Shown here piece after piece: positions 1 through 37,335 of a stretch of 64,000 nt of DNA. Numbering within the stretch: the first letter of the stretch is position 1; every line of letters starts with the position of its first letter. Position numbers and translations under genes: made by a program. The stretch lies in the NCBI GenBank assembly GCA_937995535.1, contig CALKJU010000055.1:1-64000 (forward strand), given 5' to 3'. The notes under the pieces are model-generated. The model was given only the letters and a program-made list of their open reading frames with translations. It did no database searches and was not told the DNA's origin. Source of the stretch: an uncultured Alphaproteobacteria bacterium (GTDB taxonomy: Bacteria > Pseudomonadota > Alphaproteobacteria > Geminicoccales > Geminicoccaceae).

Positions 1-227
1 AGGATCGCCGCGACCAGCGTCACCAGGGGCAGCATCTCGGCGAGGATCACTGGCAAGCGCAGCAGGGAGTAGTCGAGCACCGGCCAGCGCCGTGACCCGG
101 CCGCCCGCAGCACGCTTTCGGCGTTCTCGATCAGGTCGAACATCAGGCCGAAGCCGACGACGGCGAACAGCACCACCGCCAGGCGGACGAAGAACATCCG
201 GCTAATGTAGCGTGCGACGACGCTCAT
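1..227 (-). CDS. LptG-like permease, YjgP/YjgQ family (5' part only; cut by window edge)
   Basis: Only the first 75 or so residues are in the window; the rest lies to the left of position 1. The visible N-terminus (MSVVARYISRMFF, then a hydrophobic stretch, then a second helix beginning LPVILAEMLPLV) is typical of LptF/LptG inner-membrane permeases, which with LptB drive lipopolysaccharide out of the inner membrane. The ATG at 227 overlaps the TGA of the next gene upstream (224-226), the usual lptF-lptG coupling. Because the flanking genes look like lipid-modifying enzymes rather than general LPS genes, this may be a paralogous pair serving another lipid. The family call is good; the substrate is inference. 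Confidence 0.75.
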   Translation of the reverse strand, partial: MSVVARYISRMFFVRLAVVLFAVVGFGLMFDLIENAESVLRAAGSRRWPVLDYSLLRLPVILAEMLPLVTLVAAI

Positions 228-1420
228 GAGCTGGTGCTCATCCGGCGTAGCACGGCACCGAGCCGGTCGAGGGCAGCGTCGAGGCGCGACTCGCCGGCAT
301 GCCGTGGCACGCGGTAGGCGTTGCGGACGTAGAGCCAGATGCAGAGCGCCGCGAAGATCGCGAACGGCACCCACAGGCCGAGCACGGCGCCGACCTCGTT
401 GTTGTCGACCAGCCGCTCGCCGGCGGCGAGGATCTGATTGTAGGCGATCAGCACGGCGAGGCCGATCGCGAGGCCGTATGAGCGGTGCGTGCGACGACGA
501 CCGACGGCCAGCGGCACGGCCAGCAGCGGCAGCAGCGGGATCGACAGCGAGCGGACCAGCCGCCCGCCCAGTTCGGCCTCGATCTCCCAAGGATCGACGT
601 GCGGCGGGGGATCGCCGCGCGCGGCGAACAGCTCCGTGAGGGTCAGCTCGCGCTCGTTCTCGCCTCGAGGTGCGAGTCGACCCTCGCGCCGGTCGGTCAC
701 GCTGGTCTCGAACGCGCCGAAGCGGAGGGTGACGGAGTCGGGCGGGGCGCTCCGGTCGTCGGTGCGTGCCGGCACGGCCTGCTGCACGCCGCGGGTCAGC
801 GAGATCTCGATCGGCGCTGTCCCAGCGCTGCTGCCGACGCTGCCCGCGGCTGCGGTGATCGCCACCTCGTCACCGTTCTCCGCGGTGGTGAAGATGAAGA
901 TCCCCTGGAAGCGGTCCTGGTCCTCGGACATGCGGCTGACCATCGCCGTGGTGCGATCGAGGCTGGTGAACACGCCCTCCCGCAGCAGGCTCATGAACGA
1001 CGCATTGGTCACCGCTTGGGCGGCCGCGCGGTAGGCGAACCGGCTGTAGGGCTGGACGAAGCCGACCAGGACGATGTTGACCACCACGAGGAGCACGGCC
1101 GCGGCGATCAGCGGGCGCACGAGCTGTGGCAGGCCGGATCCCGCCGCCATCATCGCGTCGAGCTCGCCTTCTCGGGACAAGCGCGAGATCACCATCAGGA
1201 TCCCGATGAAGAACGCGGCGGGAAGAGCCAAGCCCATGTAGTGCGGCACGAGGTAGCCGAGCATCTCGAAGATCACGAGCAGGCTGCCGCGCCAGCCGAT
1301 GACCAGATCGACGACGCGCAGCATCCGCTCGGCCAGGAGCACGAGCATGGCGACGAGCAATGTGGCCAGCATCGGGTGGCCGACCTGCTGCAGCACATAG
1401 CGGGAGAGCGTCGACATCAT
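224..1420 (-). CDS. LptF-like lipid/LPS export permease (YjgP/YjgQ family)
   Basis: The product is about 398 residues, normal for the family. It begins MMSTLSRYVLQQ and has two N-terminal helices, a third helix around residue 100, a periplasmic beta-jellyroll-like middle (about 130-280, including DRTTAMVSRMSEDQDRF), and three C-terminal helices (around SIPLLPLLAVPLAVGR). This is the LptF/LptG architecture. The open frame continues further upstream, but that extension is arginine-rich, low-complexity and antisense-like, so the ATG at 1420 (or the adjacent one at 1417) is preferred. The stop overlaps the lptG-like start by the ATGA arrangement. The next upstream gene ends 58 bp away. Substrate could be LPS or, given the neighbours, a sphingolipid-type outer-membrane lipid; the sequence does not decide. 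Confidence 0.8.
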   Translation of the reverse strand: MMSTLSRYVLQQVGHPMLATLLVAMLVLLAERMLRVVDLVIGWRGSLLVIFEMLGYLVPHYMGLALPAAFFIGILMVISRLSREGELDAMMAAGSGLPQLVRPLIAAAVLLVVVNIVLVGFVQPYSRFAYRAAAQAVTNASFMSLLREGVFTSLDRTTAMVSRMSEDQDRFQGIFIFTTAENGDEVAITAAAGSVGSSAGTAPIEISLTRGVQQAVPARTDDRSAPPDSVTLRFGAFETSVTDRREGRLAPRGENERELTLTELFAARGDPPPHVDPWEIEAELGGRLVRSLSIPLLPLLAVPLAVGRRRTHRSYGLAIGLAVLIAYNQILAAGERLVDNNEVGAVLGLWVPFAIFAALCIWLYVRNAYRVPRHAGESRLDAALDRLGAVLRRMSTSS

Positions 1421-1478
1421 CGTCGGTCGGCGGATGGCACGGCCCGGCGCCGAGCGGGGCGTGGTAGGGCGCGCAGCC

Positions 1479-2450
1479 TCATACCGAAGCCGGTTCCCGC
1501 GCGCCAGCCTCGACCAGGAGGAGCCGGTGTCCATTCGTCTCCGGCACGACACGGCGCAGGAACTCGCGGCGCGCGCGTCCGGTCGCCGGATCGAGCCGGC
1601 GCGCCTCGATCTCGAAGGTCCAGCCGTGCTCGCCGCGCTCCAGGCGGTGCAGCAGGTAGCCGCCATCGTGGTCGCCGGCGTCGGACCGGAGCGATGCGGA
1701 CGGCCCGCCGACCACCGGGATCGGGCCGGCCGGTCCCTGGAGCTGAGCGAACTGGAACCGATGCTGATGGCCGCACAGGACCAGCTCCGCGCCGGCGTCG
1801 CGGAGCACGGCGCGGAAGGCCGCGGCGTCGGTCAGCCGCCGCCGCCAGCTCGTCATCCCTTCCGCCGGTGGGTGATGCAGCAGCACCACGCGGCAGCAGC
1901 CGGGACGGTGCAGCTCGGCCAACAGGGCCCGCAGACGCCCGAGCTGGGCCGAGCCGATCCGTCCGGTCGCCAGCGTCGGTGGGTTGGGGACGGCCGTCGA
2001 GATGCCGACGAACGTCACCGGGCCACGGCGCCGGGCGAAGGGAAAGCTCATCCATCGGTCGGCGGGCGTGGTGTCGTCGTCGCCGCGCATGAACGGTCGG
2101 AGATGGGCCCAGCCGCCGATCCAGCGCGGCGGGACATAGGCGTCGTGGTTGCCCGGAACGAACGTCACATGGTCGGGGACGCCCAGCCCGTGGAGCCATG
2201 CCGCGCCCTGCTCGAACTCGCCCGGCAGCGCGAGGTTGACGAGGTCGCCGGTGACGGCGACGTGGTCGGGTGCCTGGGCGCGCAGGTCCTCGGCCAGCGC
2301 GTCCAGCACCTCGCGCCGATGGAGCCGCTGCCGGCGCTGCTGCCAGGAGAGCCAGCCCAGGACGCGACGGCTCGCCAGATCGCGCCAGCGCACCGGCGGC
2401 AAGGGCGCCACATGCAGGTCGGTGAGATGCGCGAACCGGTAGCCCACCAT
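1479..2450 (-). CDS. Calcineurin-like metallophosphoesterase
   Basis: The 323-residue product carries the full metallophosphoesterase motif series: DLH near the N-terminus (FAHLTDLHVA), GDLVN, GNHD (FVPGNHDAY), a histidine in VVLLHHPP, and GHQH (LVLCGHQH). These bind a two-metal centre that hydrolyses phosphate esters. There is no signal peptide, so it acts in the cytoplasm or at the inner face of the membrane. The start at 2450 overlaps the stop of the nucleotidyltransferase gene by ATGA, so the two are translationally coupled. Enzymes of this fold include LpxH (UDP-diacylglucosamine hydrolase), cyclic-nucleotide phosphodiesterases and lipid phosphatases. Next to acyltransferase and permease genes, a lipid-phosphate or nucleotide-lipid substrate is the reasonable guess. 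Confidence 0.85.
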   Translation of the reverse strand: MVGYRFAHLTDLHVAPLPPVRWRDLASRRVLGWLSWQQRRQRLHRREVLDALAEDLRAQAPDHVAVTGDLVNLALPGEFEQGAAWLHGLGVPDHVTFVPGNHDAYVPPRWIGGWAHLRPFMRGDDDTTPADRWMSFPFARRRGPVTFVGISTAVPNPPTLATGRIGSAQLGRLRALLAELHRPGCCRVVLLHHPPAEGMTSWRRRLTDAAAFRAVLRDAGAELVLCGHQHRFQFAQLQGPAGPIPVVGGPSASLRSDAGDHDGGYLLHRLERGEHGWTFEIEARRLDPATGRARREFLRRVVPETNGHRLLLVEAGAREPASV

Positions 2451-3250
2451 CAGCGCGGCTCGGCGGCGAGGATCCGCTCGACGAGTTCGAGATCGGCGAC
2501 CTTGTCGACGTCGATCGCCGCCTCGGCGAAGGGCAGGCGGACGGCGTGCACGCGGCAGCCGATCACCGTCGCCACATGGCTCATCGCCTCGTCGAGCGAG
2601 AGCCGGCCAAGGAGGTAGTGGGCGAGGGCACGCCAGCCGAAGGCGCCGGCGATGCGCCACGGCCGCTTCCGGTCGGCTTCCACCCGGCGCCAGAACGTGA
2701 CCGCTGCGGCCGCCGCAGGCGTCAGGAGCGCGAACAGGTTCGCGCCGGAATAGCGCTCGTCACGGAAGCGCAGCCAGGTGCGCCGCGAGTCCGGGTAACG
2801 GGCCAGCAGCACGCTCGACGCGGTGAGCCCGACGGCGACATCCGCCCCACTGGCTGCGGCCTCGCGGCAGAAATGCTCGACCATCTCCGGACGCAGCAAG
2901 GGGTGGTCGGCGGTGGTGAGGAGCAGGGGGTAGCAGGAGGACTCGGCGGCGAGCACCGCGGCCACACTGCGGCTCGGCGTCGCCGCGGCGTCGAACAGAC
3001 GCACGCGCCGGCCCACGATCCGCCGCGCGATCTCGACATCGCCCGCGAAGGGCGTGCCACGCTCGGCGCTGACCATCACGCCATCGACGCACGGCGTCGC
3101 GGCGAGCGTGTCGAGCACACGCGCCAGCATGGCGAGGCCGCCGGTCCGTACGAGGCATTTGTGCGGCTCGCCCCGATAGGCGGCGATGGGGTCCGCGGGG
3201 CCGCGGCTGCCCGCGAGAACCAGGGCGCGGAACCGGGGCAGGTCGCTCAC
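2450..3250 (-). CDS. MobA-like nucleotidyltransferase (possible CpgD-like cytidylyltransferase)
   Basis: This 266-residue protein starts at a GTG (3250) that overlaps the TGA of the GNAT gene (3247-3249). The N-terminus has the NTP-transferase signature in a modified form: ALVLAGSRGPADP, then HKCLVRTGGLAML, where the lysine normally contacts the nucleotide phosphates. A TADHPLL motif around residue 110 supplies the metal-binding aspartate, and a late AAIDVDKVADL motif matches the second acidic site. Such enzymes move a nucleotide onto a phosphorylated small molecule. In Caulobacter a protein of this general type, CpgD, was reported as a phosphoglycerate cytidylyltransferase for ceramide diphosphoglycerate synthesis. 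The neighbours make that role worth testing, but molybdopterin or sugar nucleotidylation cannot be excluded from sequence alone. Confidence 0.75.
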   Translation of the reverse strand: MSDLPRFRALVLAGSRGPADPIAAYRGEPHKCLVRTGGLAMLARVLDTLAATPCVDGVMVSAERGTPFAGDVEIARRIVGRRVRLFDAAATPSRSVAAVLAAESSCYPLLLTTADHPLLRPEMVEHFCREAAASGADVAVGLTASSVLLARYPDSRRTWLRFRDERYSGANLFALLTPAAAAAVTFWRRVEADRKRPWRIAGAFGWRALAHYLLGRLSLDEAMSHVATVIGCRVHAVRLPFAEAAIDVDKVADLELVERILAAEPR

Positions 3251-4389
3251 GCGAGGGCCTTCTCGTAGATGCGATACCGCTTGTAGGGTCGGCCTCCGAC
3301 CAGCTCGATGATGTCGCGGACGGGGCGGTTGTCCTCGAGGATCCAGGACAGCTCGGCCTTCCGTACGCCCTGCGACCGGGCATGGTCGCGTACCGCCGCG
3401 ATCACGCCGAGCGCAAGAGCGGCACCGCGCGGCGTGCCCTGATGCTTGCGCAGGATGCCCATCAACGGCATGCGCGCGCTGCGCAGGCCCCTGACCTTGA
3501 GCCGCCAGAGCAACTTGAGCACCCCTGTCGGCAGCAGGCGGCCGCGGAGGTCGGCGATCGCCTCGTTGAGATTGGGCAGGGTCACGACCATCGCCGCCGG
3601 CTCGCCCGCCACCTCGCCAATGGCGAAGTTGCCCGCACCGACCAGAGGCCGGATGTTGCGGCCGAGGGCCTGCACCTCCTCCTCCGTCCACGGCAGGAAG
3701 CCCCAATTGTCGGCCCAGGCGTCGTTGAAGATCCGTCGCATCGTCTCCAACTCGGCGGCGTACCGGCGCATGTCGATCGGCCGGATGCGGACGTCGGGCA
3801 GCCGCCGTAACCGATCCATCAGACGCCGTGCCGGCGGTGGCCAGTCGGCAGCCACGTCGAAGTCGTAGGCGATCAGGGTCCGGATCGGTCGATAGCCGGC
3901 GGCCTCGAGCCGCACCGCGTAGTAGGGCCGATGGTGGCCCATCATCATCGCCGGCGGACTGTCGAACCCCTCGACCAGGAGCCCGCTCTCGTCGTTGATC
4001 GAAAGGGAGAACGGGCCGATGACCCGGCGCATCCCGCGCGTCCGCAGCCAGTCCTCCGCCGCGGCGGTCAACGCCGCGAACACCTCCGGCTCGTCGGCGG
4101 CCTCGAGAAACCCGAACTGGCCGGTCGCGTCGTCGTAGCGCTGGAGATGGGCTTGGTTGACCTGAGCGCTGATCCGGCCGATCGGGCGGTCGCCACGCAA
4201 GGCCAGCCAATAGCCGACCTCCATCCGGCGCAGCGCCGGGTTCTTCGCCGGGTCGAGATGCTCCAGACGCTCGAGGAACAGCGGCTGCACCCAGTTCGGA
4301 TCGTCGGCGTAGAGCGGTGCCGCCGCGGCGATGAAGCGCCGCAGCCCCTCGCGCGTGACCGGCTCGACGCGCACCGCCGCGGCGGTCAT
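3247..4389 (-). CDS. GNAT-fold acyltransferase of the bacterial ceramide synthase-like family
   Basis: The 380-residue protein belongs to a large GNAT-related family often mis-annotated as dATP pyrophosphohydrolase. Characteristic stretches are ADDPNWVQPL near residue 30, RRVIGPFSLSINDE around 120, GFDSPPAMMMGHHRPYY around 140, WADNWGFLPW around 225 and the C-terminal RKAELSWILEDNRPV and YKRYRIYEKAL. To my knowledge the bacterial ceramide synthase (bCerS, CCNA_01212 of Caulobacter), which N-acylates a sphingoid base, is in this family. Other members have no known substrate, so the function is inferred. The gene is followed with a 4-bp overlap by the nucleotidyltransferase gene and preceded 7 bp away by the fatty acid hydroxylase gene. 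The start at 4389 is the only good ATG. Confidence 0.7.
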   Translation of the reverse strand: MTAAAVRVEPVTREGLRRFIAAAAPLYADDPNWVQPLFLERLEHLDPAKNPALRRMEVGYWLALRGDRPIGRISAQVNQAHLQRYDDATGQFGFLEAADEPEVFAALTAAAEDWLRTRGMRRVIGPFSLSINDESGLLVEGFDSPPAMMMGHHRPYYAVRLEAAGYRPIRTLIAYDFDVAADWPPPARRLMDRLRRLPDVRIRPIDMRRYAAELETMRRIFNDAWADNWGFLPWTEEEVQALGRNIRPLVGAGNFAIGEVAGEPAAMVVTLPNLNEAIADLRGRLLPTGVLKLLWRLKVRGLRSARMPLMGILRKHQGTPRGAALALGVIAAVRDHARSQGVRKAELSWILEDNRPVRDIIELVGGRPYKRYRIYEKALA

Positions 4390-4396
4390 CGCCCGG

Positions 4397-5164
4397 TCAG
4401 GCGGTCGCGCGACGGCGCTGGCGACGTGCGGTCAGCTCGTCCTCGCTTTCGGACAGTTCGGCGACCCAAGGATAACGATCGCGCTCAGCGCCGGTGTAGC
4501 CGAGATTGAAGGTCGTCGGGCTGCGCTCGACCTCCTTCATCTGCCCATAGAAGGTTCCGAAAACGCGGTCCCAAACACCGCTCGTGATTCCGAAATTGCC
4601 CTGCTCGCTGTGGAAGTGATGTGCCAGATGTCGCTTCTTGATCTCCCGCAGCCAGCCATTGCGCGGCGTAAAGGGCAGGTGCTGCACGCAATGGCAGAAC
4701 TCGTACACGGCAAAGATCAGCAAGCCGGTGGTCATCGCAGCGGCGGCACCGGCGACTCCGGCGACCAGCCAGCCGAGCGGCAAGGTGACCGCCAGGATCG
4801 TCGGCAGCGTCGTATAGAGCGCACCGAACAGCACCGAGAGATCGTGCGGGTTCTGATGATGGTCGTAGTGGACCCGCTTCCATGCCTTGGCGGTCCAGCG
4901 GCTCTTGTAGGGCCAGCGGGCGTGCAGCACCCAGCGGTGCAAAGCGTACTCGACCAGCGGATAGATCACTACTGTCGCCCCCGCGGCGAGCATCGGCCCC
5001 CACGCACTCTCGGCCAAGTACAAGGTCGATGCCAGCCCGACGAGCGCCAGGACGAGATAGACCTGGATCGAGTAATGCGTGAGGTAGGCGACGACGAGGT
5101 CACCGAGCCCCATCTTGTCGAGCTCGTACTTTCTCGTCGACCAGGTTGTCCAACGTCCCAGCAT
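4397..5164 (-). CDS. Fatty acid hydroxylase/sterol desaturase superfamily membrane enzyme
   Basis: The product is about 255 residues with four to five hydrophobic segments and the di-iron histidine clusters of the superfamily: HRWVLH near 95, HYDHH near 118, HCVQH near 165 and HLAHHFH near 190. These hold the iron pair that inserts an oxygen atom into an alkyl chain. Members hydroxylate sphingoid bases, fatty acyl chains or carotenoids, or desaturate sterols. The C-terminal GVWDRVFGTFYG motif is typical. ATG 5164 (MLGRW) was chosen; an ATG 21 bp further upstream is also in frame. The gene lies 7 bp upstream of the GNAT gene on the same strand, so the two probably act on the same lipid. A sphingoid or acyl-chain hydroxylase is the favoured inference. 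Confidence 0.8.
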   Translation of the reverse strand: MLGRWTTWSTRKYELDKMGLGDLVVAYLTHYSIQVYLVLALVGLASTLYLAESAWGPMLAAGATVVIYPLVEYALHRWVLHARWPYKSRWTAKAWKRVHYDHHQNPHDLSVLFGALYTTLPTILAVTLPLGWLVAGVAGAAAAMTTGLLIFAVYEFCHCVQHLPFTPRNGWLREIKKRHLAHHFHSEQGNFGITSGVWDRVFGTFYGQMKEVERSPTTFNLGYTGAERDRYPWVAELSESEDELTARRQRRRATA

Positions 5165-5190
5165 TGGCGATCCGCTCCAGCGCACCTAGC

Positions 5191-7536
5191 TCAGATGGCC
5201 CGGGGCGCCTCGGTCATCAACCGTTGAATCCGCTCCACCGCCATGCGCATGTCGTCCAGTGGCTTCGGCCGCGCCACCTCGCTTGGACGTCCGACGACGG
5301 TGATCAGGCCCCGCGCGACGAGGGCGTCGTGCAGCAGCCCGAGATCGACAGGCCGGCGTACCCAGCCGCGCTCGATCAGCCGGTCGAGGAGGCGGGACAG
5401 CGCATGCTGCTGCAGCGGCGTCCCGCGATAACTCTTGCCGCCACCGGCAGCAAGCTCGAGGAGCCGCAGGGTCGGGCGCACGACGAGCAGCGAGTCGTAC
5501 CATTTCGGCGGCTCGAACAGGGTCACCGGCTTGCCGGCCAAGCACGCCTCGGCAAGAAGCTGCGGGTCACCGGCGCTCAGCACCACCGCGTCCACGGCCG
5601 CGAGGACGGCGCGTCGTCGCTCGAGAGAGGCCATGGTCGCGCCGTCCAGCCCATGCCAGCCGTCGCCGCCCAGGGCGCGGCGGAGCGCAGCCGCCCCGGC
5701 GCGGTCCACACCGTCGCCGATGCTCACCAACAGGGAGCCGCCGCGGCGGCGGGTCTCCTCGAGCGCGGCCCTCCCCAGCAACTCGCCTGCCCGTGGGGTA
5801 AGCACGTAGGGGCTCGTGTGGCTCGGCACGAGCAATGCCGTCCATGGCCGCGGCACATCGCGCGCGTCGACCGGCGGTGCGCCGGTTGCCGTTGCCGCCA
5901 GGAGCGGCGCGGCGACGTGCAGCACGTTCGGGCGAATCGGCAGCCGCTCGTGCGGTACCGTCACGATGAGGTCGAACAGATCGAACGGTGCATCGGGCCG
6001 GCCGAGCTGGACCAGCCGGACCTGGCCCGGTGCCTGCTCGCGCAGCCAGCGCGCCACCGGGATGCTCGCCGCGCCGGACGAGATCACGAGATCGGGCCAA
6101 GGCGGAGCCAGGCGCGAGGAACTCGCTGCGTCGAGGCGGTCGAGCGCACGGCCGCGCGACAGGCGCGACAACAGGCTTCCCGGCCGGAACGACAGGCGTT
6201 TCTCCTCGAAGGGCCAGCCGAGCGCCCCGGCGAGGCTCAGCACCTGCGCGTCATGCGCCGCGTCTCCGTCCAGCAGCGCCCAGACACGCGGCACTCCGGG
6301 ATCGGCGAGCCGCTGGGTGGTCACGCTCAGCCCGGCGGCGGCGCCCTGCCCCACGACCTCGAGATGCCAGCTCACACCCGGGTGGCGCGCCGCCGCCTCG
6401 GCGATGCGCTGCCGCCACCAAGCGGCGCTGCCCAGCCCTTCGCTGGCGAAGGCTGGTACCCGGACCAGGACGAGGCGCTCCGCGCGTGCGAAGCTCTCGG
6501 CGAGGAGCCAGCCGATGTCGGCCGGCGGGACCTGCGCGAGCGCCCGATCCAACAGGACGGCGGCGAAGCGCCGGGCGGGCCAAGCTGCCGCGCCGCGGCG
6601 CAGGTCCACGACCGTCGCCGGCACCGCAGGTGGCTCGCCGCATGTCACGGCGAGGACGGAAGCTCCCGCATCGTCGAGCAGGCGGCGCAACGTTTCCCCC
6701 AGTTCGACGCCGCCCTCGGAGGGGCGATTGGTCGCCACGCGGCGCACGAAGTCGGGGCTCGGCGAGGACGCGGTGAACACCTGGTAGCCGGCCGCGTCGG
6801 CCGCGCGCTCCAGATCGTGCCAGATGTAGGCCAGCGGATTGGGATGGTAGGAGTAGTCACCGGGAAAGGGGTGCCAGGGCTGCTGGTGCAACGCGGTGTA
6901 GTGCAAACACTTGGTGCGACCCTCGACATACTCGTTGTCGCGCGCGTTCCAGTGCGGATCGCACGGCCCCCACAGGCCCGGCGTCGCGGCCGGCTTCTTG
7001 ATCAGGGCGTGCTTGCCTTCGCGGTTGGCCGTCTCCCGGTTCCAGAGCGGCGCCATCCGGGCGCAGTCGATCAGCATGACCGACGTCTCTTCCGGTGAGA
7101 TGGCGAGATAGCCGTGCTCGCCCATGTCGAGGTCGAAGAGCAGCGCCGGATCGGCGAGGTAGATCTGGTCGACGTCGTTGTAGATCGCGCGTCCCGCACG
7201 CCCGGCGAAGTCGGGGATCGCGAACCGGTACTTGGTGAACCCGGTGCGCCAGCCGCGTCGGTCGAAGCCGGCGATGTTCTTCATCAGGTGGATCTCGTAG
7301 GTCCGCGCGGGATCGCGGACCTGCTCGATCGACCAGAAGAAGACGCGCTCGGCGCGGTACTGCGCCTCCTCTGTGCCGAGAAAGATCCGCACCGGGGCGC
7401 GGGTCGAGGGTCTGATCCCCGGCCGCGGAGCGAGAATCACCACGTCCGGATGGTCGCGCTCGAACGGCCAACGATCCCCGGCCGGCGGTTCGGTGTGGGC
7501 GCTATCGTCGCCGGTCGGGCTCAGGGTTTCCGCCAT
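5191..7536 (-). CDS. Multidomain putative glycosyltransferase with C-terminal ELM1/GtrOC1-like domain
   Basis: This 781-residue protein appears to have three parts. Residues about 30-260 resemble a GT8-like glycosyltransferase, with a possible DxD site in IYNDVDQIYL. Residues about 265-420 resemble a methyltransferase fold that has lost the SAM-binding glycine loop: VLAVTCGEPPAV, then AAVLLDRALAQVP and RAERLVLVRVPAF. Residues about 430-781 match the ELM1 (mitochondrial fission protein-like) family, with RVWALLDGDAAHDAQ at its start, PDLVISSGAAS, SLLVSIGDG and AVVLSAGDPQLLAEAC. Bacterial ELM1 proteins are treated as putative glycosyltransferases. There is no signal peptide. The gene ends 26 bp before the hydroxylase gene and sits between it and an exporter ABC gene, so surface-glycan or glycolipid work is likely. 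Start taken at MAETLS; an ATG 36 bp upstream is possible. Confidence 0.65.
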   Translation of the reverse strand: MAETLSPTGDDSAHTEPPAGDRWPFERDHPDVVILAPRPGIRPSTRAPVRIFLGTEEAQYRAERVFFWSIEQVRDPARTYEIHLMKNIAGFDRRGWRTGFTKYRFAIPDFAGRAGRAIYNDVDQIYLADPALLFDLDMGEHGYLAISPEETSVMLIDCARMAPLWNRETANREGKHALIKKPAATPGLWGPCDPHWNARDNEYVEGRTKCLHYTALHQQPWHPFPGDYSYHPNPLAYIWHDLERAADAAGYQVFTASSPSPDFVRRVATNRPSEGGVELGETLRRLLDDAGASVLAVTCGEPPAVPATVVDLRRGAAAWPARRFAAVLLDRALAQVPPADIGWLLAESFARAERLVLVRVPAFASEGLGSAAWWRQRIAEAAARHPGVSWHLEVVGQGAAAGLSVTTQRLADPGVPRVWALLDGDAAHDAQVLSLAGALGWPFEEKRLSFRPGSLLSRLSRGRALDRLDAASSSRLAPPWPDLVISSGAASIPVARWLREQAPGQVRLVQLGRPDAPFDLFDLIVTVPHERLPIRPNVLHVAAPLLAATATGAPPVDARDVPRPWTALLVPSHTSPYVLTPRAGELLGRAALEETRRRGGSLLVSIGDGVDRAGAAALRRALGGDGWHGLDGATMASLERRRAVLAAVDAVVLSAGDPQLLAEACLAGKPVTLFEPPKWYDSLLVVRPTLRLLELAAGGGKSYRGTPLQQHALSRLLDRLIERGWVRRPVDLGLLHDALVARGLITVVGRPSEVARPKPLDDMRMAVERIQRLMTEAPRAI

Positions 7537-7599
7537 GGCGCGTGATGTACGCAGGCCAAGCGCGGGCGTCAAAGTGACAGCGTGTCCGGCCCGCCGCAG

Positions 7600-9312
7600 T
7601 CAGCTCGACATCGCCGCCGCGGCCGACACCTCCTGCACGCGGCCGTCTTCGACCCGGTAGATCCGGTCGGCGAGATCGATGAATTCCGGCCGATGCGAGA
7701 CCGCCAGCACCGCCACCTGGCGGGCGAGGTCGCGAATCTCCCGGGCGAGGGTCGTGGCCGTCGTCGGGTCGAGGGCGCTCGTCACCTCGTCCAGAACCAG
7801 GAGCCGCGGCCGCCCGACCAGCGCGCGGGCCAGGGCGATGCGCTGCCGCTGCCCGCCGGACAGCCGTGCACCCTTCTCGCCCACGACCTCGTCGAGTCCC
7901 TCCGGCAGCGCAGCGACGAATGGCCAGGCACCGGCGGTCTCCAGCGCGGCGCGGACCTCGGCGTCACCGAGCGTCGGATCGCCCAGGGTGACGTTCGCCC
8001 TAACGGTGTCGTTGAACAGCAACAGCTCCTGCGGGACGTAGCCGACCTTGGCCCGCCAGCTCTGCAGGTCGAGGGCCTGTAGTGGCACGTCGTCGATCCG
8101 GACCTCGCCGCTGTCCGGCCGATACAAGCCGAGGATCAGGTCGATCAGGGTGGTCTTGCCCGATCCCGACGGACCGGCGAGGACCGTGAGGCCGCGCGCG
8201 GGCACGGTCAGCGACACGTCGCGGAGGACCGGCGTCTCGTCGTGGGCGAAGCGCACCCGGTCGAGACGAACCTCGCGCTCGAACCTGGCCTCGGTGCGGC
8301 CCGGGTTGGGCTCGGGCGCGGCCGTGGCCTCGGCGATCAGCTCGCGCGCCGACAGATAGGCGCTCTCGAACAGCGCCGCCTTCTGATAGGCGCGCTGGAT
8401 CTTGCCGATGCCCGAGACCAGACGGTTGATGAGCACCCCGGTCACCAGCACCTCGGAGATCGGGATCTGCCAGACGCCGACGGTCAGGTAGAGGCCGACG
8501 CCGAGGACCAGAGCCAGCAGAACGTCCTGTCCGGCGGTCAGCCCCTCGCGGCTGACGACCTGCTGGCGCAGCGCACGCCGCAGCTTGGCGATCCGCTCGG
8601 CCAGCAGGTTGGCGAAAGCCTCCTGCCGCGCCATCGCCTTGACCGGCTTGATGTTGATCAGCGTATCATTGAGGAAAACGATCAGGTCGCGGGTCCGCTC
8701 GGTCTGCCGCCAGCCGGCGCGGCGCGAGACGCGCACGAGGAAGCCCAACGCCAGCGTCATCGTCCCGCCGATCAGGTAGGCGGTCAGGGCCAGTTTCCAG
8801 GAGACGAACAGGGCGACGATGCCGAGGACCAAGGTCGAGATCGCGGCGGCGAGCAGCTCTGCCACGAGCAGGTAGGCCTGGGCGGCGCGGGTCGCGTCGT
8901 TGCTCATGGCGTTGGCGATGCGGCCCATCGGCTGATGGACGAAGAAGCTCCACCGCACGGCCATCAGGCTGGCGACCAGCCGGCGGCGCAGGTTGGCCGC
9001 GACCTCGGCGGTGGCGTAGCCGACGTAGCGCATCGCCACGAAGGTCAGGGTGGCCTTGAGGACCAGAGCGCCGACGGCAAGCGTCAGCAGCGGGCCGAGG
9101 GTCGGCTCGAGGCCGATCCGTCCGAGCGCGTCCGAAAGTGCGCGTCCGACCGGTGAAGCGTCGGTCAGTTCCGGTGCCACGGCGAGATTGATCAGCGGTA
9201 GCAGCGTGGCGAGGCCGAGACCCTCGGCGAGGCTGGCGAGCAGCATGCAGCCGAGCACCAGGACCGGTCGGGTCCCATCGGCGCGGAAGAAGATCTGGAG
9301 AAGATCACGCAT
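7600..9312 (-). CDS. Exporter-type ABC transporter, fused membrane and ATPase domains
   Basis: The 570-residue half-transporter has a six-helix membrane domain (about 1-320) and an ATPase domain (about 345-565). The ATPase has Walker A (GPSGSGKTT), the Q-loop (VGYVPQELLLF), the signature LSGGQRQR, Walker B (RLLVLDEVTSALD) and the switch histidine (AVSHRPE). It should work as a homodimer in the inner membrane. The domain order matches MsbA and the lipid, glycan and peptide exporters. The ATG at 9312 lies inside the last codons of the AI-2E family gene (8-bp overlap). The open frame upstream of that ATG is only a shadow of the neighbour. Lipid or glycan export is a contextual guess. Confidence 0.85.
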   Translation of the reverse strand: MRDLLQIFFRADGTRPVLVLGCMLLASLAEGLGLATLLPLINLAVAPELTDASPVGRALSDALGRIGLEPTLGPLLTLAVGALVLKATLTFVAMRYVGYATAEVAANLRRRLVASLMAVRWSFFVHQPMGRIANAMSNDATRAAQAYLLVAELLAAAISTLVLGIVALFVSWKLALTAYLIGGTMTLALGFLVRVSRRAGWRQTERTRDLIVFLNDTLINIKPVKAMARQEAFANLLAERIAKLRRALRQQVVSREGLTAGQDVLLALVLGVGLYLTVGVWQIPISEVLVTGVLINRLVSGIGKIQRAYQKAALFESAYLSARELIAEATAAPEPNPGRTEARFEREVRLDRVRFAHDETPVLRDVSLTVPARGLTVLAGPSGSGKTTLIDLILGLYRPDSGEVRIDDVPLQALDLQSWRAKVGYVPQELLLFNDTVRANVTLGDPTLGDAEVRAALETAGAWPFVAALPEGLDEVVGEKGARLSGGQRQRIALARALVGRPRLLVLDEVTSALDPTTATTLAREIRDLARQVAVLAVSHRPEFIDLADRIYRVEDGRVQEVSAAAAMSS

Positions 9313-10378
9313 CGTTCGGGTCGGCCGGCTCCGTCGGCTGGGTGCTCCACTCGCGCAGCAGGGCGTAGCCGACCGCGAGCAGCGTCGGTCCGAGAAAGAT
9401 GCCCAGGAACCCGAAAGCCAGAAGGCCGCCGATGACACCCAGAAAGACGAGCAGCAGGCCCATGTCGGAGCCACGGCTGATCAGGTAGGGCTTGAGGAGG
9501 TTGTCCACGCCACTGACGACGAGGCCGCCCCAGACCAGCATGAAGATGCCCCAGCCATGCTGGCCGTCGTAGAGCAGCCAAGCCGCGACGGGACCCCACA
9601 CGAGGGGCGGGCCGAGCGGCGGCAACAGGGCCAGGACGGCCGTGAGGATGCCCAGGAACAGGACCTTGTCCAGACCCACGAGCCAGAAGCCCAGGGCCGC
9701 CAGCAGGCCCTGCACCAGGGCGGTGCCGATCAGGCCGTAGACGACGCTGATGATGGTGTCCCCGGCGACCTTGAGGAGGTGGTGCGCCCGGTCGCCGGCG
9801 AGGCGATGGACGAGGGTCCGCAGGCGCTGCGCCGCAAAGCGGCCATCGCGATAGAGGAAAAACGTCGCGACCACGCTCAAGGTCAGCTCCAGCAGACCGC
9901 GGCCGACCGAGGCGGTGGCGGCCAGCACCGTGTCACGCAGGGCCGACATGTAAGGCGCCAGCAGCTCGACCAGGGTGCCGGTGTTGGCGGCGAGCTCGCT
10001 CCAGCTGCGCGCGATCTCGGCACCGAGCAGCGGGATCTGCGCCACCCAGCCGGGTGGGCCGGGCAGGCCACCGGCGGCGTAGGTCCGGACGATGTCGAAC
10101 ACCGTTCGGGCGTCGTCGGCGAGGCTCGTGCCGACCAGCACCATCGGCAGGACCAGGGCCGTCGCGAGAAGCAGCGTCATGAGCAGTGCGGCGAGCGACG
10201 CGCGACCGCCCAGCCGATGCTCCAGCCAAGCGTAGACGGGCCAGGTCGAGAACGTCAGGATCACCGCCCACATCAGTGACGATGCAAACGGCAGCAGGAC
10301 CACCGCGCAGCCGATGGCGAGGAGTGAGAGAGCGGCGATGCCGAAGCCAGCCTCGATGCGACGAGTCGAGCCGTTCAT
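9305..10378 (-). CDS. AI-2E/PerM family membrane permease
   Basis: The 357-residue protein shows the typical AI-2E family pattern: two N-terminal helices, a third around residue 60-80, a long amphipathic central part (about 90-200), and four C-terminal helices with the family motifs GLIGTALVQGLLAALGF, LLPPLGPPLVWGP and SGVDNLLKPYLIS near 290. Members are widespread secondary transporters or channels. Only a few have known roles (autoinducer-2 export, Na+/H+ exchange), so no substrate is assigned. It starts the minus-strand block that runs to the left edge and overlaps the ABC transporter gene by 8 bp, so co-expression is likely. A 102-bp divergent region separates it from the reductase gene. 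Confidence 0.85.
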   Translation of the reverse strand: MNGSTRRIEAGFGIAALSLLAIGCAVVLLPFASSLMWAVILTFSTWPVYAWLEHRLGGRASLAALLMTLLLATALVLPMVLVGTSLADDARTVFDIVRTYAAGGLPGPPGWVAQIPLLGAEIARSWSELAANTGTLVELLAPYMSALRDTVLAATASVGRGLLELTLSVVATFFLYRDGRFAAQRLRTLVHRLAGDRAHHLLKVAGDTIISVVYGLIGTALVQGLLAALGFWLVGLDKVLFLGILTAVLALLPPLGPPLVWGPVAAWLLYDGQHGWGIFMLVWGGLVVSGVDNLLKPYLISRGSDMGLLLVFLGVIGGLLAFGFLGIFLGPTLLAVGYALLREWSTQPTEPADPNDA

Positions 10379-11764: not shown

Positions 11765-13276
11765 CTAGGGTGCGTCGAACAGGGTCCCGTCGAGTTTCAC
11801 CTGGGTCAGCCCGTTTGTGTAGAAGTCGACGAGCACGATCCGGTCGCCGGCGTCGAGCGGGCTGGTGATGCGCAGATCGTTCCCGACCCGCGTCAGGACC
11901 ATGCTGGCGCCGCTGCCGTTCAGGCTGCCGATCAGGTCGATGTTCTCACCGTCCTCGTAGTCCATGATCGTGTCGACCTGCGATCCCGGTCCGAAGAGGA
12001 ACGTATCGACACCGCCGGCTGCGCCGGTGCCGCCGTAGATGACGTCGTTGCCGTCGTTGCCGTTGAAGATGTCGTTGCCGGCGCCGCCGAACAGGGTGTC
12101 GGCACCGCCGTCACCCTGCAGGCTGTCGTTGCCGACTCCGCCGAAGAGGGTGTCGTCACCGTTGCCGCCGCGCAGGCGCCCGTCGCCGACCCGCTGCGTG
12201 ATGATGTCGTTGCCGTCGCCGCCGAACATGGTATCGCCGCCGCTGGCGCCGCCGTCCAGCGTATCGTTGCCGCCGTCACCGAAGATCGTGTCGCCCGAGG
12301 TGCCGCCCTTGACTGTGTCGTCACCGTTGCCACCCTGGAGGCGGCCGCGGCCGTTGCCCCCCTCGATCCGGTCGTTGCCCTCACCGCCTCGCAGGACGTC
12401 GACACCGTCACCGCCGAACAGCGAATCGTCGCCGGCCCCGCCGTCCATCACATCGTTCCCGGCGTCGCCGACCATGACGTCGTTGCCGTCACCGCCGACC
12501 AGGGAGTCGTTGCCGAGTCCGGCGCGCAGGATGTCGTCGCCTGCTCCGCCGATCAGCAGGTCGTCGCCGTTACCGCCGTCGAGGAGATCCGCGTCGTTCC
12601 CGCCGGCGAGGATATCGTTGCCCTCGCCGCCGTAGAGGAGGTCCTCGCCGAGGCTCCCCTGCAGGATGTCGTTGCCGAGGCCGCCATAGAGCGAATCGTT
12701 GCCAAAGCCGCCATAGAGACCGTCATCGCCGGTGCTGCCGAACAGCGCATCCTGGTCGTTGCCGCCGTAGAGCAGGTCGTTGCCGACGCCGCCGTTCATC
12801 CGGTCGTTGCCGTTACCACCGAAGAGGCGGTCGTTGCCGTTTCCGCCGTCCAGCGAATCATCACCGTTGTTGCCTAGAATGATGTCGTCGCCATTCAAAC
12901 CGAACAGCACGTCGGCGACGTTGCTTCCCTTGAGCGTGTCGTTGCCGATCAGCGCGCTCGACATGAAGCGAAGCGCACTGGCGCCGTTCACGGTCAGCAG
13001 CTTGAACGTCCCCACCGACATCGAGATATTGCGCAGATCGAACTCGACCGTGCCGCCCGGGAGCTGCGAGATGACCCGGTTGATCAGGCCGCCGGTGATC
13101 TGCAGCTGGCCACCCACGGTCTGATAGGTGAAGCCACTGCCGAAAATCCGGAACGCGCCCCCGTCGCCCGCGGTGAGCTGCGCGTAGGTCGCACGTGCGT
13201 CGGCCACGTTGGCGATGCCGGAGAACGTGTCCGTCCGCATGTTGTAGCCGCCGATGCCGGCCTGGAAGTTGGCCAC
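11765..13276 (-). CDS. RTX (hemolysin-type calcium-binding) repeat protein
   Basis: The 503-residue protein has a short N-terminal part (about 1-105) with no signal peptide, then about 33 glycine- and aspartate-rich nonapeptides of the GGxGxDxLx type (about 110-415), then a C-terminal segment of about 80 residues that includes VDTFLFGPGSQVDTIMDYEDG, the kind of tail recognised by type I secretion systems. The nonapeptides fold into a calcium-bound parallel beta-roll outside the cell. There is no catalytic domain, so it may be a surface or matrix protein. No type I secretion genes lie in the window. Start is a GTG at 13276 with an ideal ribosome site 4 bases away. A few repeat units are degenerate (NGRGR, RVGDGR), which hints at internal duplication. 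Confidence 0.88.
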   Translation of the reverse strand: MANFQAGIGGYNMRTDTFSGIANVADARATYAQLTAGDGGAFRIFGSGFTYQTVGGQLQITGGLINRVISQLPGGTVEFDLRNISMSVGTFKLLTVNGASALRFMSSALIGNDTLKGSNVADVLFGLNGDDIILGNNGDDSLDGGNGNDRLFGGNGNDRMNGGVGNDLLYGGNDQDALFGSTGDDGLYGGFGNDSLYGGLGNDILQGSLGEDLLYGGEGNDILAGGNDADLLDGGNGDDLLIGGAGDDILRAGLGNDSLVGGDGNDVMVGDAGNDVMDGGAGDDSLFGGDGVDVLRGGEGNDRIEGGNGRGRLQGGNGDDTVKGGTSGDTIFGDGGNDTLDGGASGGDTMFGGDGNDIITQRVGDGRLRGGNGDDTLFGGVGNDSLQGDGGADTLFGGAGNDIFNGNDGNDVIYGGTGAAGGVDTFLFGPGSQVDTIMDYEDGENIDLIGSLNGSGASMVLTRVGNDLRITSPLDAGDRIVLVDFYTNGLTQVKLDGTLFDAP

Positions 13277-13433: not shown

Positions 13434-13551
13434 CGCTGTCGCGCACGCCGGTACGACCGTGGCGGTGGACCGTTGCGGCGTTGCCACCATGGCCGGCGCG
13501 TGGTCAGGTAGCCGCGAGGCGTCGTTGCGCCGCCGTAGCGTCGGGGCCTTC

Positions 13552-14886
13552 ATGCAGACCAACTTCACCGCCGAGCAGCTCGCCGATCCTGGGACCCGCG
13601 AGGCCGAGCGGATCCTGCGGACCTGTGTCCATTGCGGCTTCTGCACCGCGACCTGCCCGACCTATCTGCTCCTCGGCGACGAGCTCGACAGCCCGCGCGG
13701 CCGGATCTACCTGATCAAGCAGATGCTGGAGCGTGGCGAGCCGGCGACGCCGCAGGTCGTGCGCCACCTCGATCGCTGCCTGTCCTGCCTGTCGTGCATG
13801 ACGACCTGCCCGTCCGGCGTGCACTACATGCACCTGATCGATCACGCCCGGGCGCACATCGAGCACAGCTATCGGCGACCGTTCCTCGACCGTGCCCTGC
13901 GTGCGGTCCTGGCGGTGGTACTGCCGCGCCCTGGCCTGTTCCGCGCGAGCCTGATCGGGGCACGCCTCGCGCGCGGCCTCGCCGGGCGGTTGCCGGCCGC
14001 CGGGCAGCTCGGCCGACTGCGGGCGATGCTGGAGCTGGCGCCGACCGCGCTGCCGGCGCCGACCGTGCTGGCGCGGCCGGGCGTCATCCCCGCCGAGGGT
14101 GAGCGGCGCGCCCGCGTCGCGTTGCTGGTCGGCTGCGCGCAACAGGTCCTGGCCCCGCAGATCAACGATGCGACCGTTCGCCTGCTGACGCGGCACGGGG
14201 TCGAGGTGGTCGTCGCCGAGGCGTCGGCCGCCTGCTGCGGCGCCCTCACCCACCACATGGGCAAGGAGGCGCCGGCACGGGCCGCCGCGCTGCGCCTGAT
14301 CGACGCCTGGTCACGCGAACTCGACCGCGGCGGGCTCGACGCCATCGTGATCAACGCCTCCGGCTGCGGCACGACGGTCAAGGACTACGGCTTCATGTTC
14401 CGCGATGATCCCGCTCATGCGGAGCGCGCCGCGCGGATCGCCACGCTCGCCAAGGACATCAGCGAGCTGATGGCGCAGCTCGGGCTGCGCCCGGCGGTGC
14501 GGACGAGCGATCTGGTCGTCGCCTACCACTCCGCCTGCTCCTTGCAGCACGGCCAGCAGGTGCGCACACCGCCGAAGCAGCTTCTCACCGCCGCCGGCTA
14601 CACCGTGAAGGAGCCGGCGGAAGGCCATATCTGCTGCGGCTCGGCCGGAACCTACAACATCCTGCAGCCGGAGATCGCGACGCGGCTGCGCGCGCGCAAG
14701 GTCGGCAACCTGGAGCGCCTCGGGGCGGATGTGATCGCCACCGGTAACATCGGCTGCATGACCCAGATCGCGGCCGGCACGAGCCTGCCGGTCGTGCACA
14801 CCGTCGAACTCCTCGACTGGGCGACCGGAGGTCCGCCGCCTGCGGCCCTCGCGGCCCGGTCCGCTGCGTCCCGGGCAGAGGCGTGA
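13552..14886 (+). CDS. glcF: Glycolate oxidase iron-sulfur subunit GlcF
   Basis: The 444-residue protein has two [4Fe-4S] ferredoxin motifs (cysteines 25, 28, 31, 35 and 76, 79, 82, 86) followed by two cysteine-rich CCG domains (SAACCGALTHH and EGHICCGSAG). This is the GlcF layout. With GlcD and GlcE it oxidises glycolate to glyoxylate and sends the electrons to the membrane quinone pool. glcD and glcE are not next to it but at 36.1-38.8 kb on the other strand, so the operon is split. The ATG at 13552 is preferred; the frame extends 31 codons upstream but that part is arginine-rich and unlike the family. The stop overlaps the GTG start of arfB. Confidence 0.92.
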   Translation: MQTNFTAEQLADPGTREAERILRTCVHCGFCTATCPTYLLLGDELDSPRGRIYLIKQMLERGEPATPQVVRHLDRCLSCLSCMTTCPSGVHYMHLIDHARAHIEHSYRRPFLDRALRAVLAVVLPRPGLFRASLIGARLARGLAGRLPAAGQLGRLRAMLELAPTALPAPTVLARPGVIPAEGERRARVALLVGCAQQVLAPQINDATVRLLTRHGVEVVVAEASAACCGALTHHMGKEAPARAAALRLIDAWSRELDRGGLDAIVINASGCGTTVKDYGFMFRDDPAHAERAARIATLAKDISELMAQLGLRPAVRTSDLVVAYHSACSLQHGQQVRTPPKQLLTAAGYTVKEPAEGHICCGSAGTYNILQPEIATRLRARKVGNLERLGADVIATGNIGCMTQIAAGTSLPVVHTVELLDWATGGPPPAALAARSAASRAEA

Positions 14887-36107: not shown

Positions 36108-37334
36108 TCAGATCGCGGCCGCGAGCCGGCCAGGGTTGAGGACGCCTTTCGGATCGAAGCCTTGCTTGACCCGTCGCGTCAGCCCCTCGAGCAGCACCGG
36201 CTCGGGGTGCATCGGCGGGACGATCCGACGAAGCTCCTCGGGCGCACGCACCAGTGTCGCGTGCCCAGCGCCCGGCGCGAGCCCGGCGCGAATCTGTCCG
36301 CAGCCGGCATCCGCTGGCACATGGCCCAGGGCCAGCCACACCAGCCCGCCCGACCAGTCGAAGAGGATCTCCGGGTCGAGTGGGGCAGCGCGCGCCGCGA
36401 CGGCCGCCGCATCGGTCGGCGCGCAGGTGACCCGCCAGAGCAGCGGGGCGAGCGCATCCACGAGCCGAACGTCGCGAATCTCCCGCCAGAGACGCCGGGT
36501 CGCATCGGCGCCGAGGCGGATCGCTTCGAGACCCGCCGGCCGGGCCACGACCCGCATCAGCGCGTCGAGCCGGTACCCGACCGAGGTCGCGGTGCCCTCG
36601 ACGCGCAGGGCGGCCAAGGCACGTCCGGCACCGGCGACCTCGGGAACCGCCGATCGCGCCGTGGCGCGCTCGGGCAGCACGGCGGCTGCCGACACCTCGC
36701 AGGAGCTGCCCATCGCGCGGCGCAGCGCGGTCAGCAGCTTGGTCATGTCGCCGCCGCTGAGGAGCAGCGTGGCGCGGTCGGTGGCAGCCGGCAGGACCTT
36801 GAACGTGATCCGGCTCATCACCGCCAGCGTGCCGTACGAGCCGGCCAGCAGCTTGGGGAGATCGTAGCCGGTTACGTTCTTCATCACCCGGCCGCCGGCC
36901 TTGATCGTCTCGCCGTGGCCGGTGACGCATTGCACGCCGAGGATGTGATCGCGCGCCGCACCGGCCTTGATCCGGCGCGGGCCGGCGAGGTTGCAGGCGA
37001 ATACCCCACCGATGCTCTGCAGGTTCGCAGGGCCACCGAGAACGACCCCATAGTCCGCCGGTTCGAAGGCGAGCTCCTGGTGACGCTCGGCGAGCATCGC
37101 CTCGATCTCGATCAGCGGCGTCCCGGCAGCCGCCGACATGACGAGCTCGTCGGGCTCGTACATGTCGATGCCGCTCATCCGCGCAAGGCGCAGCTCGGCG
37201 CGCGCGTCGACCGGGCGGCCGAGGCCGCGCTTGCTGCCGCGCCCGATCACCTCGAGCGGTGCCTCCTCGGCGACCGCCCAGCGGACGACCTGCTCCAGCT
37301 CGTCGAGGCTCGTCGGCTCGAAGACCTCGCGCAT
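36108..37334 (-). CDS. glcE: Glycolate oxidase FAD-binding subunit GlcE
   Basis: The 408-residue protein is a PCMH-type FAD-binding subunit. It starts MREVFEPTSLDELEQVV and has VIGRGSKRGLGRP, SAAAGTPLIEIEAMLAE, the FAD loop QSIGGVFACNLAGPRR near 105 and KNVTGYDLPKLLAGSYG near 150, ending with KQGFDPKGVLNPGRL. With GlcD and GlcF it forms the membrane-associated glycolate dehydrogenase. It follows glcD with a single base between stop and start. The third subunit gene, glcF, is at 13.6 kb. Confidence 0.92.
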   Translation of the reverse strand: MREVFEPTSLDELEQVVRWAVAEEAPLEVIGRGSKRGLGRPVDARAELRLARMSGIDMYEPDELVMSAAAGTPLIEIEAMLAERHQELAFEPADYGVVLGGPANLQSIGGVFACNLAGPRRIKAGAARDHILGVQCVTGHGETIKAGGRVMKNVTGYDLPKLLAGSYGTLAVMSRITFKVLPAATDRATLLLSGGDMTKLLTALRRAMGSSCEVSAAAVLPERATARSAVPEVAGAGRALAALRVEGTATSVGYRLDALMRVVARPAGLEAIRLGADATRRLWREIRDVRLVDALAPLLWRVTCAPTDAAAVAARAAPLDPEILFDWSGGLVWLALGHVPADAGCGQIRAGLAPGAGHATLVRAPEELRRIVPPMHPEPVLLEGLTRRVKQGFDPKGVLNPGRLAAAI

Positions 37335-37335
37335 C

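What the first reader, a model, noticed from the sequence alone, without database searches (positions are those of the whole stretch)
1..9312. Candidate bacterial ceramide/sphingolipid synthesis and export cluster
A fatty acid hydroxylase, a GNAT protein of the bacterial ceramide-synthase-like family, a MobA-like nucleotidyltransferase, a metallophosphoesterase and an LptF/LptG-like permease pair are joined by overlapping start/stop codons on one strand. An ELM1-type glycosyltransferase and an exporter ABC transporter lie just upstream. In Caulobacter, ceramide synthase and a phosphoglycerate cytidylyltransferase (CpgD) act in ceramide lipid synthesis. The dedicated permease pair and hydroxylase would make this a compact synthesis-and-export locus, with the cut-off genes to the left possibly carrying the first steps.
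Basis: partly seen in the sequence, partly recalled or inferred. Interest (0 to 1): 0.75.

Follow-up and report, generated by a model that had tools for sequence, protein, structure and literature searches.

The report
Sphingolipid synthesis and export gene cluster
These genes make ceramide-based lipids and probably carry them to the outer cell surface, using a dedicated copy of the lipopolysaccharide exporter that related bacteria keep even after losing a key gene for making lipopolysaccharide.

Summary
Nine window genes form a minus-strand operon; five match the Caulobacter ceramide/phosphosphingolipid cluster. The GNAT-like protein is 49% identical to C. vibrioides bCerS, is its only homologue in the genome, and occurs in all 56 Spt-positive genomes sampled. 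The first steps (aasR-cerR-acpR-spt) are on contig C17. C17 starts with the last 27 codons of the gene that ends this operon in relatives, so C17 and the window flank one assembly gap. Corrections: the nucleotidyltransferase is the CC_1153 counterpart, not CpgD; CpgD and CpgA were not found; a second LptF/LptG pair was already proposed as sphingolipid exporter in Caulobacter. New here: ceramide-linked LptF and LptG form their own clades. Spt-positive genomes with LpxC usually carry both kinds of pair; those without LpxC usually carry only the ceramide-linked pair, always within 6.4 kb of the GNAT gene or spt (30 of 30), and keep LptD. In the window's genome this is the only LptFG found, the canonical pepA-lptFG-lptD site is empty, and LpxC has altered catalytic residues. 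This is strong comparative evidence for Lpt-type sphingolipid export. No lipid was measured.

The parts
9305..10345 (-). AI-2E family permease, first gene of the operon (overlaps the ABC gene by 8 nt); conserved beside the cluster in relatives
   Evidence: PF01594 E=2e-45; present in relatives
7600..9312 (-). ABC exporter, fused TM-ATPase, MsbA-like but below every NCBIfam cut-off; not conserved in the cluster (present in G005, absent in G001, G010, G007)
5191..7536 (-). 781-aa protein with C-terminal ELM1 domain; N-terminal part has a DxD-like motif (YNDVD) suggesting a glycosyltransferase (inference)
   Evidence: PF06258 E=4e-28 at aa 428-678; conserved in G005, G010, G007, G011, G207
4397..5185 (-). 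FA2H/Scs7-type di-iron fatty acid hydroxylase, predicted to hydroxylate the ceramide; full set of histidine boxes
   Evidence: PF04116 E=6e-21; nearest solved structure yeast ceramide hydroxylase Scs7 4zr1 E=4e-13; directly upstream of GNAT in 14 of 20 loci
3247..4389 (-). bacterial ceramide synthase (bCerS, CC_1154 counterpart)
   Evidence: 48.9% identity over 380 aa to C. vibrioides CC_1154; tree; co-occurs with Spt
2450..3250 (-). MobA-like nucleotidyltransferase, CC_1153 counterpart (not CpgD)
   Evidence: PF12804; 42.6% to C. vibrioides CC_1153 E=2e-50; no match to CpgD
1479..2450 (-). calcineurin-like metallophosphoesterase, CC_1158 counterpart
   Evidence: PF00149; 45% over 254 aa to C. 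vibrioides CC_1158, E=4e-54
224..1420 (-). LptF2, ceramide-linked LptF
   Evidence: PF03739 E=3e-60; inside the ceramide-linked LptF clade, support 100/99
1..227 (-). LptG2, first 75 codons; contig ends here
   Evidence: PF03739, TIGR04408; contig start at base 1

Best explanation
A sphingolipid synthesis-and-export locus of the Caulobacter type. Supported by orthology: acyl-ACP synthetase, ACP and Spt on contig C17 supply 3-ketosphinganine; the window's bCerS acylates it; CerR (C17) reduces it. Inferred: the FA2H-like hydroxylase adds a hydroxyl to the ceramide; the ceramide kinase (CC_1160-like) and CC_1161-like enzyme, which relatives carry where this assembly has a gap, together with the CC_1153-like nucleotidyltransferase and the phosphoesterase, build a phospho-headgroup. 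The ELM1 protein may add a sugar. [quoted passage not shown] In this lineage LptF2/G2 is the only LptFG pair found, and LPS synthesis is degenerating or gone.
For: Orthology to the C. vibrioides cluster gene by gene: bCerS 49%, CC_1153 43%, CC_1158 45%, LptF2 35%, Spt 58%, AasR 49%, CerR 39% for the window's genome; LptG2 27%, CC_1160 31% and CC_1161 41% measured with the relative G010. C17 carries aasR-cerR-acpR-spt. C17:1-81 encodes the end of the CC_1161-like gene, and four relatives show the whole locus unbroken. GNAT and Spt co-occur: 56 of 56 Spt+ and 56 of 59 GNAT+ among 387 genomes, Fisher p=2e-64. Ceramide-linked LptF/LptG form clades separate from canonical ones. Among GNAT+ genomes, 26 of 31 with LpxC have three or more LptFG genes (25 have four or five), while 31 of 34 without LpxC have two or fewer (p=4e-10). 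In 30 of 30 LpxC-less genomes that have LptFG, a pair lies within 6.4 kb of the GNAT gene or spt. LptD is kept in all 30; the four genomes without LptFG also lack LptD. In G000 and complete genome G005, pepA and lptD are adjacent with no lptFG between them, whereas sister genomes G002, G008 and G009 have lptFG next to lptD. LpxC of G000 has D and P at the catalytic positions E78 and H265; G007's has lost a zinc ligand.
Against: No lipid or activity was measured. The kinase and CC_1161-like genes of this genome fall in an assembly gap (only 27 codons of one are seen). CpgA and CpgD were not found, so the headgroup cannot be read off Caulobacter. G000 still carries an LpxC-like gene, so a residual LPS cargo cannot be excluded. 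LPS status elsewhere rests on LpxC alone. LptA, LptB and LptC were not surveyed. G076 and G040 (LpxC+, two LptFG genes), G300 (LpxC-less, four) and others break the simple count. Genomes within a family are not independent observations.
Confidence: 0.85

Rival explanations
1. Synthesis is as described, but LptF2/G2 exports mainly another lipid (residual LPS or an LPS-like glycolipid); linkage to ceramide genes reflects shared regulation only.
For: G000, G007 and G011 keep an LpxC-like gene while having only the ceramide-linked LptFG. The Lpt machine is known for LPS.
Against: Many LpxC-less genomes, including complete ones (G005, G022, G287), keep exactly this pair and LptD. LpxC active sites in G000 and G007 are altered. 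The pair is phylogenetically distinct from the canonical pair.
Confidence: 0.12
2. The operon's main product is a glycosylated sphingolipid (ELM1 glycosyltransferase, ABC flippase) rather than a phosphosphingolipid.
For: ELM1 is in the operon in most relatives; CpgA and CpgD were not found in G000.
Against: Kinase-like, CC_1161-, CC_1153- and CC_1158-like genes are conserved in the locus of relatives; in Caulobacter these serve phosphosphingolipid synthesis (PMC11324152). G001 has no ELM1 gene in its cluster; the ABC gene is not conserved.
Confidence: 0.25
3. The GNAT protein acylates another amine and the cluster makes an amino-acid or polyamine lipid.
For: GNAT enzymes are diverse; this one matches no curated family.
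Against: 49% identity to bCerS across its whole length; strict co-occurrence with Spt; convergent spt operon.
Confidence: 0.02

Closest known systems
Caulobacter crescentus/vibrioides ceramide-phosphoglycerate cluster CC_1152-CC_1168 (PMC11324152, PMC12275187)
   Same: aasR, cerR, acpR, spt, bCerS, CC_1153, CC_1158, LptF2 and LptG2 counterparts; CC_1160 (ceramide kinase) and CC_1161 counterparts in relatives' loci
   Different: No CpgA, CpgD or LptC2 found in this genome; no Wzx-like flippase or HIT gene in the locus; adds an Scs7-like hydroxylase, an ELM1 protein, an ABC exporter and an AI-2E permease; one operon convergent with the spt operon; only LptFG pair found in the genome, whereas C. 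vibrioides also has a canonical pair
Sphingomonad-type ceramide locus (L062; family assignment inferred from gene content)
   Same: spt, cerR, ACP, ceramide-linked LptF2/G2, bCerS; no LpxC; LptD kept
   Different: No hydroxylase, kinase, CC_1161- or CC_1153-like gene in the 20 kb around bCerS
Canonical LPS LptFG (pepA-lptFG-lptD locus)
   Same: PF03739 family
   Different: Separate clades; the canonical site is empty in G000 and G005
Yeast Scs7 / FA2H ceramide hydroxylase
   Same: PF04116, histidine boxes, nearest solved structure
   Different: Bacterial, hydroxylase domain only (262 aa); substrate untested

Membership tests
Bacterial ceramide synthase (bCerS, CC_1154) | Full-length homology to CC_1154 | tested here: met
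   48.9% over 380 aa, E=2e-107
Bacterial ceramide synthase (bCerS, CC_1154) | Unique homologue in genome and groups with CC_1154 | tested here: met
   one match in G000 and one in C. vibrioides; tree
Bacterial ceramide synthase (bCerS, CC_1154) | Co-occurrence with Spt | tested here: met
   56 of 56 Spt+ genomes
Bacterial ceramide synthase (bCerS, CC_1154) | N-acylation of 3-ketosphinganine | not testable with these tools
   needs enzyme assay or lipidomics
Bacterial ceramide synthase (bCerS, CC_1154) | GNAT fold | tested here: inconclusive
   no Pfam hit for the window protein; C. vibrioides bCerS hits PF00583 only at E=0.03; predicted model unusable, pLDDT 41
CpgD (CTP:phosphoglycerate cytidylyltransferase, COG1213) | Sequence similarity to CpgD | tested here: not met
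   no BLASTP match at E<10 to C. vibrioides CpgD; matches CC_1153 instead at 43%
Ceramide phosphoglycerate (CPG/CPG2) cluster | Ceramide genes aasR, cerR, acpR, spt, cerS | tested here: met
Ceramide phosphoglycerate (CPG/CPG2) cluster | CC_1160 kinase and CC_1161 for CPG | tested here: inconclusive
   27 C-terminal codons of a CC_1161-like gene in G000; both genes complete in relatives; kinase in assembly gap
Ceramide phosphoglycerate (CPG/CPG2) cluster | CpgA and CpgD for CPG2 | tested here: not met
   not found in G000, which is 93.6% complete
Sphingolipid-linked LptF2/LptG2 | Groups with C. vibrioides LptF2/LptG2 apart from canonical pair | tested here: met
   LptF clade 100/99; LptG clade 92, tested with relatives because the window's LptG is cut
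Sphingolipid-linked LptF2/LptG2 | Transports sphingolipid to outer membrane | not testable with these tools
   not shown in any organism in the papers read; PMC11324152 proposes it
FA2H/Scs7 ceramide hydroxylase | PF04116 and di-iron histidine boxes | tested here: met
   HRWVLH, HYDHH, HCVQH, HLAHH read
FA2H/Scs7 ceramide hydroxylase | 2-hydroxylation of ceramide acyl chain | not testable with these tools
   needs lipidomics

The most novel reading that the evidence does not exclude
Alphaproteobacteria have a second, sphingolipid-dedicated inner-membrane Lpt exporter (LptF2/LptG2), encoded with ceramide synthesis. When LPS synthesis was lost, apparently in about ten of the families sampled including part of the window's, the canonical LptFG was lost and the Lpt bridge (with LptD) was kept to export sphingolipids. 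Lpt is then a general outer-leaflet lipid exporter, not an LPS-only machine.
Probability: 0.65. Interest if true: 0.8.

Novelty: new variant of a known kind. Interest (0 to 1): 0.62.

Why it matters
How bacterial sphingolipids reach the outer membrane is stated to be unknown in both PMC11324152 and PMC11087976. Here, loss of LpxC acts as a natural experiment: the LptFG pair that survives is the one encoded with ceramide synthesis, together with LptD. That turns the question into a direct test in any LPS-less sphingolipid producer. The locus also names a candidate bacterial ceramide hydroxylase, found directly upstream of bCerS in 14 of 20 loci; in Caulobacter a different, unlinked desaturase/hydroxylase (CC_0202) has been assigned that step.

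Tried and rejected
1) NTP-transferase as CpgD: rejected, it is the CC_1153 counterpart. 3) Single LptFG as a relocated canonical pair: rejected by the trees. 4) L013 as a second Spt: rejected, it is 5-aminolevulinate synthase. 5) First alignment of GNAT homologues (A1) mixed strands and was redone (A2). 6) CC_1167- or CpgA-like genes in the window's operon: none. 8) Literature searches for LptFG with sphingolipid in LPS-less bacteria found only the Caulobacter proposal.
Full report
What is there. The window is the first 64 kb of contig C55 of a 3.9-Mb, 118-contig assembly; window base 1 is the contig end. On the minus strand, from a divergent oxidoreductase gene at 10481 to the contig end, lie an AI-2E permease, an ABC exporter, a 781-aa ELM1-domain protein, a fatty acid hydroxylase, a GNAT-like protein, a MobA-like nucleotidyltransferase, a calcineurin-like phosphoesterase, LptF and the first 75 codons of LptG. 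Junctions overlap by 1-8 nt or are separated by 5-63 nt.

The missing half. A family search found two alpha-oxoamine synthases in the genome. One is 5-aminolevulinate synthase; the other is serine palmitoyltransferase (NF047599, 620 bits, cut-off 500), closest to solved Sphingomonas-type SPT. It ends an operon aasR-cerR-acpR-spt on contig C17, the gene order of Caulobacter CC_1165-CC_1162. C17 begins 294 bp after spt. Its first 81 bases encode, on the opposite strand, the C-terminal 27 residues of a protein (67% identity, E=1e-4) that in relatives ends the window's operon. Four relatives (G005, G001, G010, G007) show the whole region unbroken: aasR-cerR-acpR-spt converging on an operon that runs GNAT, nucleotidyltransferase, phosphoesterase, LptF, LptG, lipid kinase, CC_1161-like gene. 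So C55 and C17 most likely flank one short assembly gap. This is inference from synteny plus the 27-codon match.

Anchoring in Caulobacter. A cpgD primer printed in PMC12275187 was used as a search pattern and retrieved C. vibrioides DSM 9893. Against its full cluster: GNAT = bCerS (CC_1154) 49% over 380 aa; nucleotidyltransferase = CC_1153 43%; phosphoesterase = CC_1158 45%; LptF2 35%; Spt 58%; AasR 49%; CerR 39%; and, measured with the relative G010, LptG2 27%, kinase = CC_1160 31%, last gene = CC_1161 41%. The nucleotidyltransferase has no match to CpgD. CpgA (CC_1159), CpgD and LptC2 were not found in the genome (two weak hits only, E=0.003 and 0.008, one inside a 595-aa ORF that does not look like LptC, the other to 66 residues of the CpgD N-terminus). 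[quoted passage not shown]

Is the GNAT a bCerS? Each genome has a single homologue. In 387 genomes of the class, 56 have a strong Spt and all 56 have the GNAT; 59 have the GNAT and 56 of these have that Spt (Fisher p=2e-64). The C. vibrioides protein sits inside the family in a maximum-likelihood tree. The GNAT fold itself was not shown here: Pfam finds nothing in the window protein and the model was too poor.

The hydroxylase. It is directly upstream of the GNAT gene in 14 of 20 loci, nearly all from different families. Its nearest solved structure is yeast Scs7, the ceramide fatty acid hydroxylase. In C. crescentus the equivalent step is assigned to a different, unlinked gene, CC_0202 (PMC11324152). 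The prediction is ceramide hydroxylation; it is untested.

The exporter. In PMC11324152 LptC2/F2/G2 were proposed to move phosphosphingolipids, without transport data, and PMC11087976 states that no sphingolipid transporter had been identified. I compared LpxC, LptF/G and LptD in 68 genomes, 65 of them GNAT-positive. Of 31 with LpxC, 26 have three or more LptF/G genes (25 have four or five; the one with three, G006, is really one pair split over two contigs). Of 34 without LpxC, 31 have two or fewer (p=4e-10, genomes not independent). In all 30 LpxC-less genomes with LptFG, a pair lies within 6.4 kb of the GNAT gene or spt, and LptD is kept. The four LpxC-less genomes without LptFG have no LptD either. 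One genome, G300, has two GNAT copies and two LptFG pairs, each pair near a GNAT copy. Trees put the ceramide-linked LptF (support 100/99) and LptG (92) in clades apart from the canonical ones; the surviving single pairs included in the tree are all of the ceramide-linked kind. They are therefore not canonical pairs that moved.

The window's own lineage. G000 has one LptFG pair, this one. At the canonical site pepA and lptD are adjacent without lptFG, as in the complete genome G005, while G002, G008 and G009 of the same family have lptFG next to lptD. LpxC is absent in G001, G003, G005, G010, G207 and G278. In G000 it survives beside ftsZ, but positions matching E. coli E78 and H265 (residue numbers and roles from my own knowledge) are D and P; in G007 the zinc ligand H79 is R. 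The reading is progressive loss of LPS with the sphingolipid exporter retained. Whether G000 still makes some LPS is open: LpxA/B/D/K were not surveyed.

Mechanism, with status. Spt, bCerS and CerR steps: supported by orthology to enzymes characterised in Caulobacter; PMC11087976 places Spt and bCerS in the cytoplasm and CerR in the periplasm. Hydroxylation, phospho-headgroup, possible glycosylation: inferred. Export by LptF2/G2 through the Lpt bridge: supported by comparative genomics, not by experiment.

Verdict. The comparative result on LPS loss is the part I did not find in the papers searched.

Noticed in passing
L100 9546-10343 (G000:C12), L119 (G007), L110 (G011): LpxC-like genes beside ftsZ whose catalytic positions are altered to different degrees (E78D and H265P in G000; H79R and H238Y in G007), as if LPS synthesis is decaying across this family.
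   Followed up: partly
L067 (G067) and genomes G246, G313, G373: Sphingolipid-gene-positive genomes of one genus (g69) that lack LpxC, LptFG and LptD altogether; how their sphingolipids reach the surface is unclear.
   Followed up: no
window 5191-7536: ELM1-domain protein with an extra N-terminal ~430 aa that matches no Pfam family; it contains a YNDVD motif like GT-A/GT8 enzymes and may be a multi-domain glycosyltransferase.
   Followed up: no
L071 4070-4867: An ELM1 homologue also lies next to aasR in an unrelated family (f80), suggesting a wider link of ELM1 proteins with sphingolipid genes.
   Followed up: no
L079 7138-8346 and L075 8442-9530: Divergent Spt-like enzymes (32-35% identity) beside a bCerS-like gene, possibly a different sphingoid or 1-deoxy-type base pathway.
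   Followed up: no
window 13459-14886 and 36108-38823: Reading of the translations suggests a glycolate-oxidase glcF-like gene about 21 kb away from glcE/glcD-like genes.
   Followed up: no
window 11765-13276: RTX-type protein made almost wholly of GGxGxD calcium-binding repeats, close to the operon.
   Followed up: no
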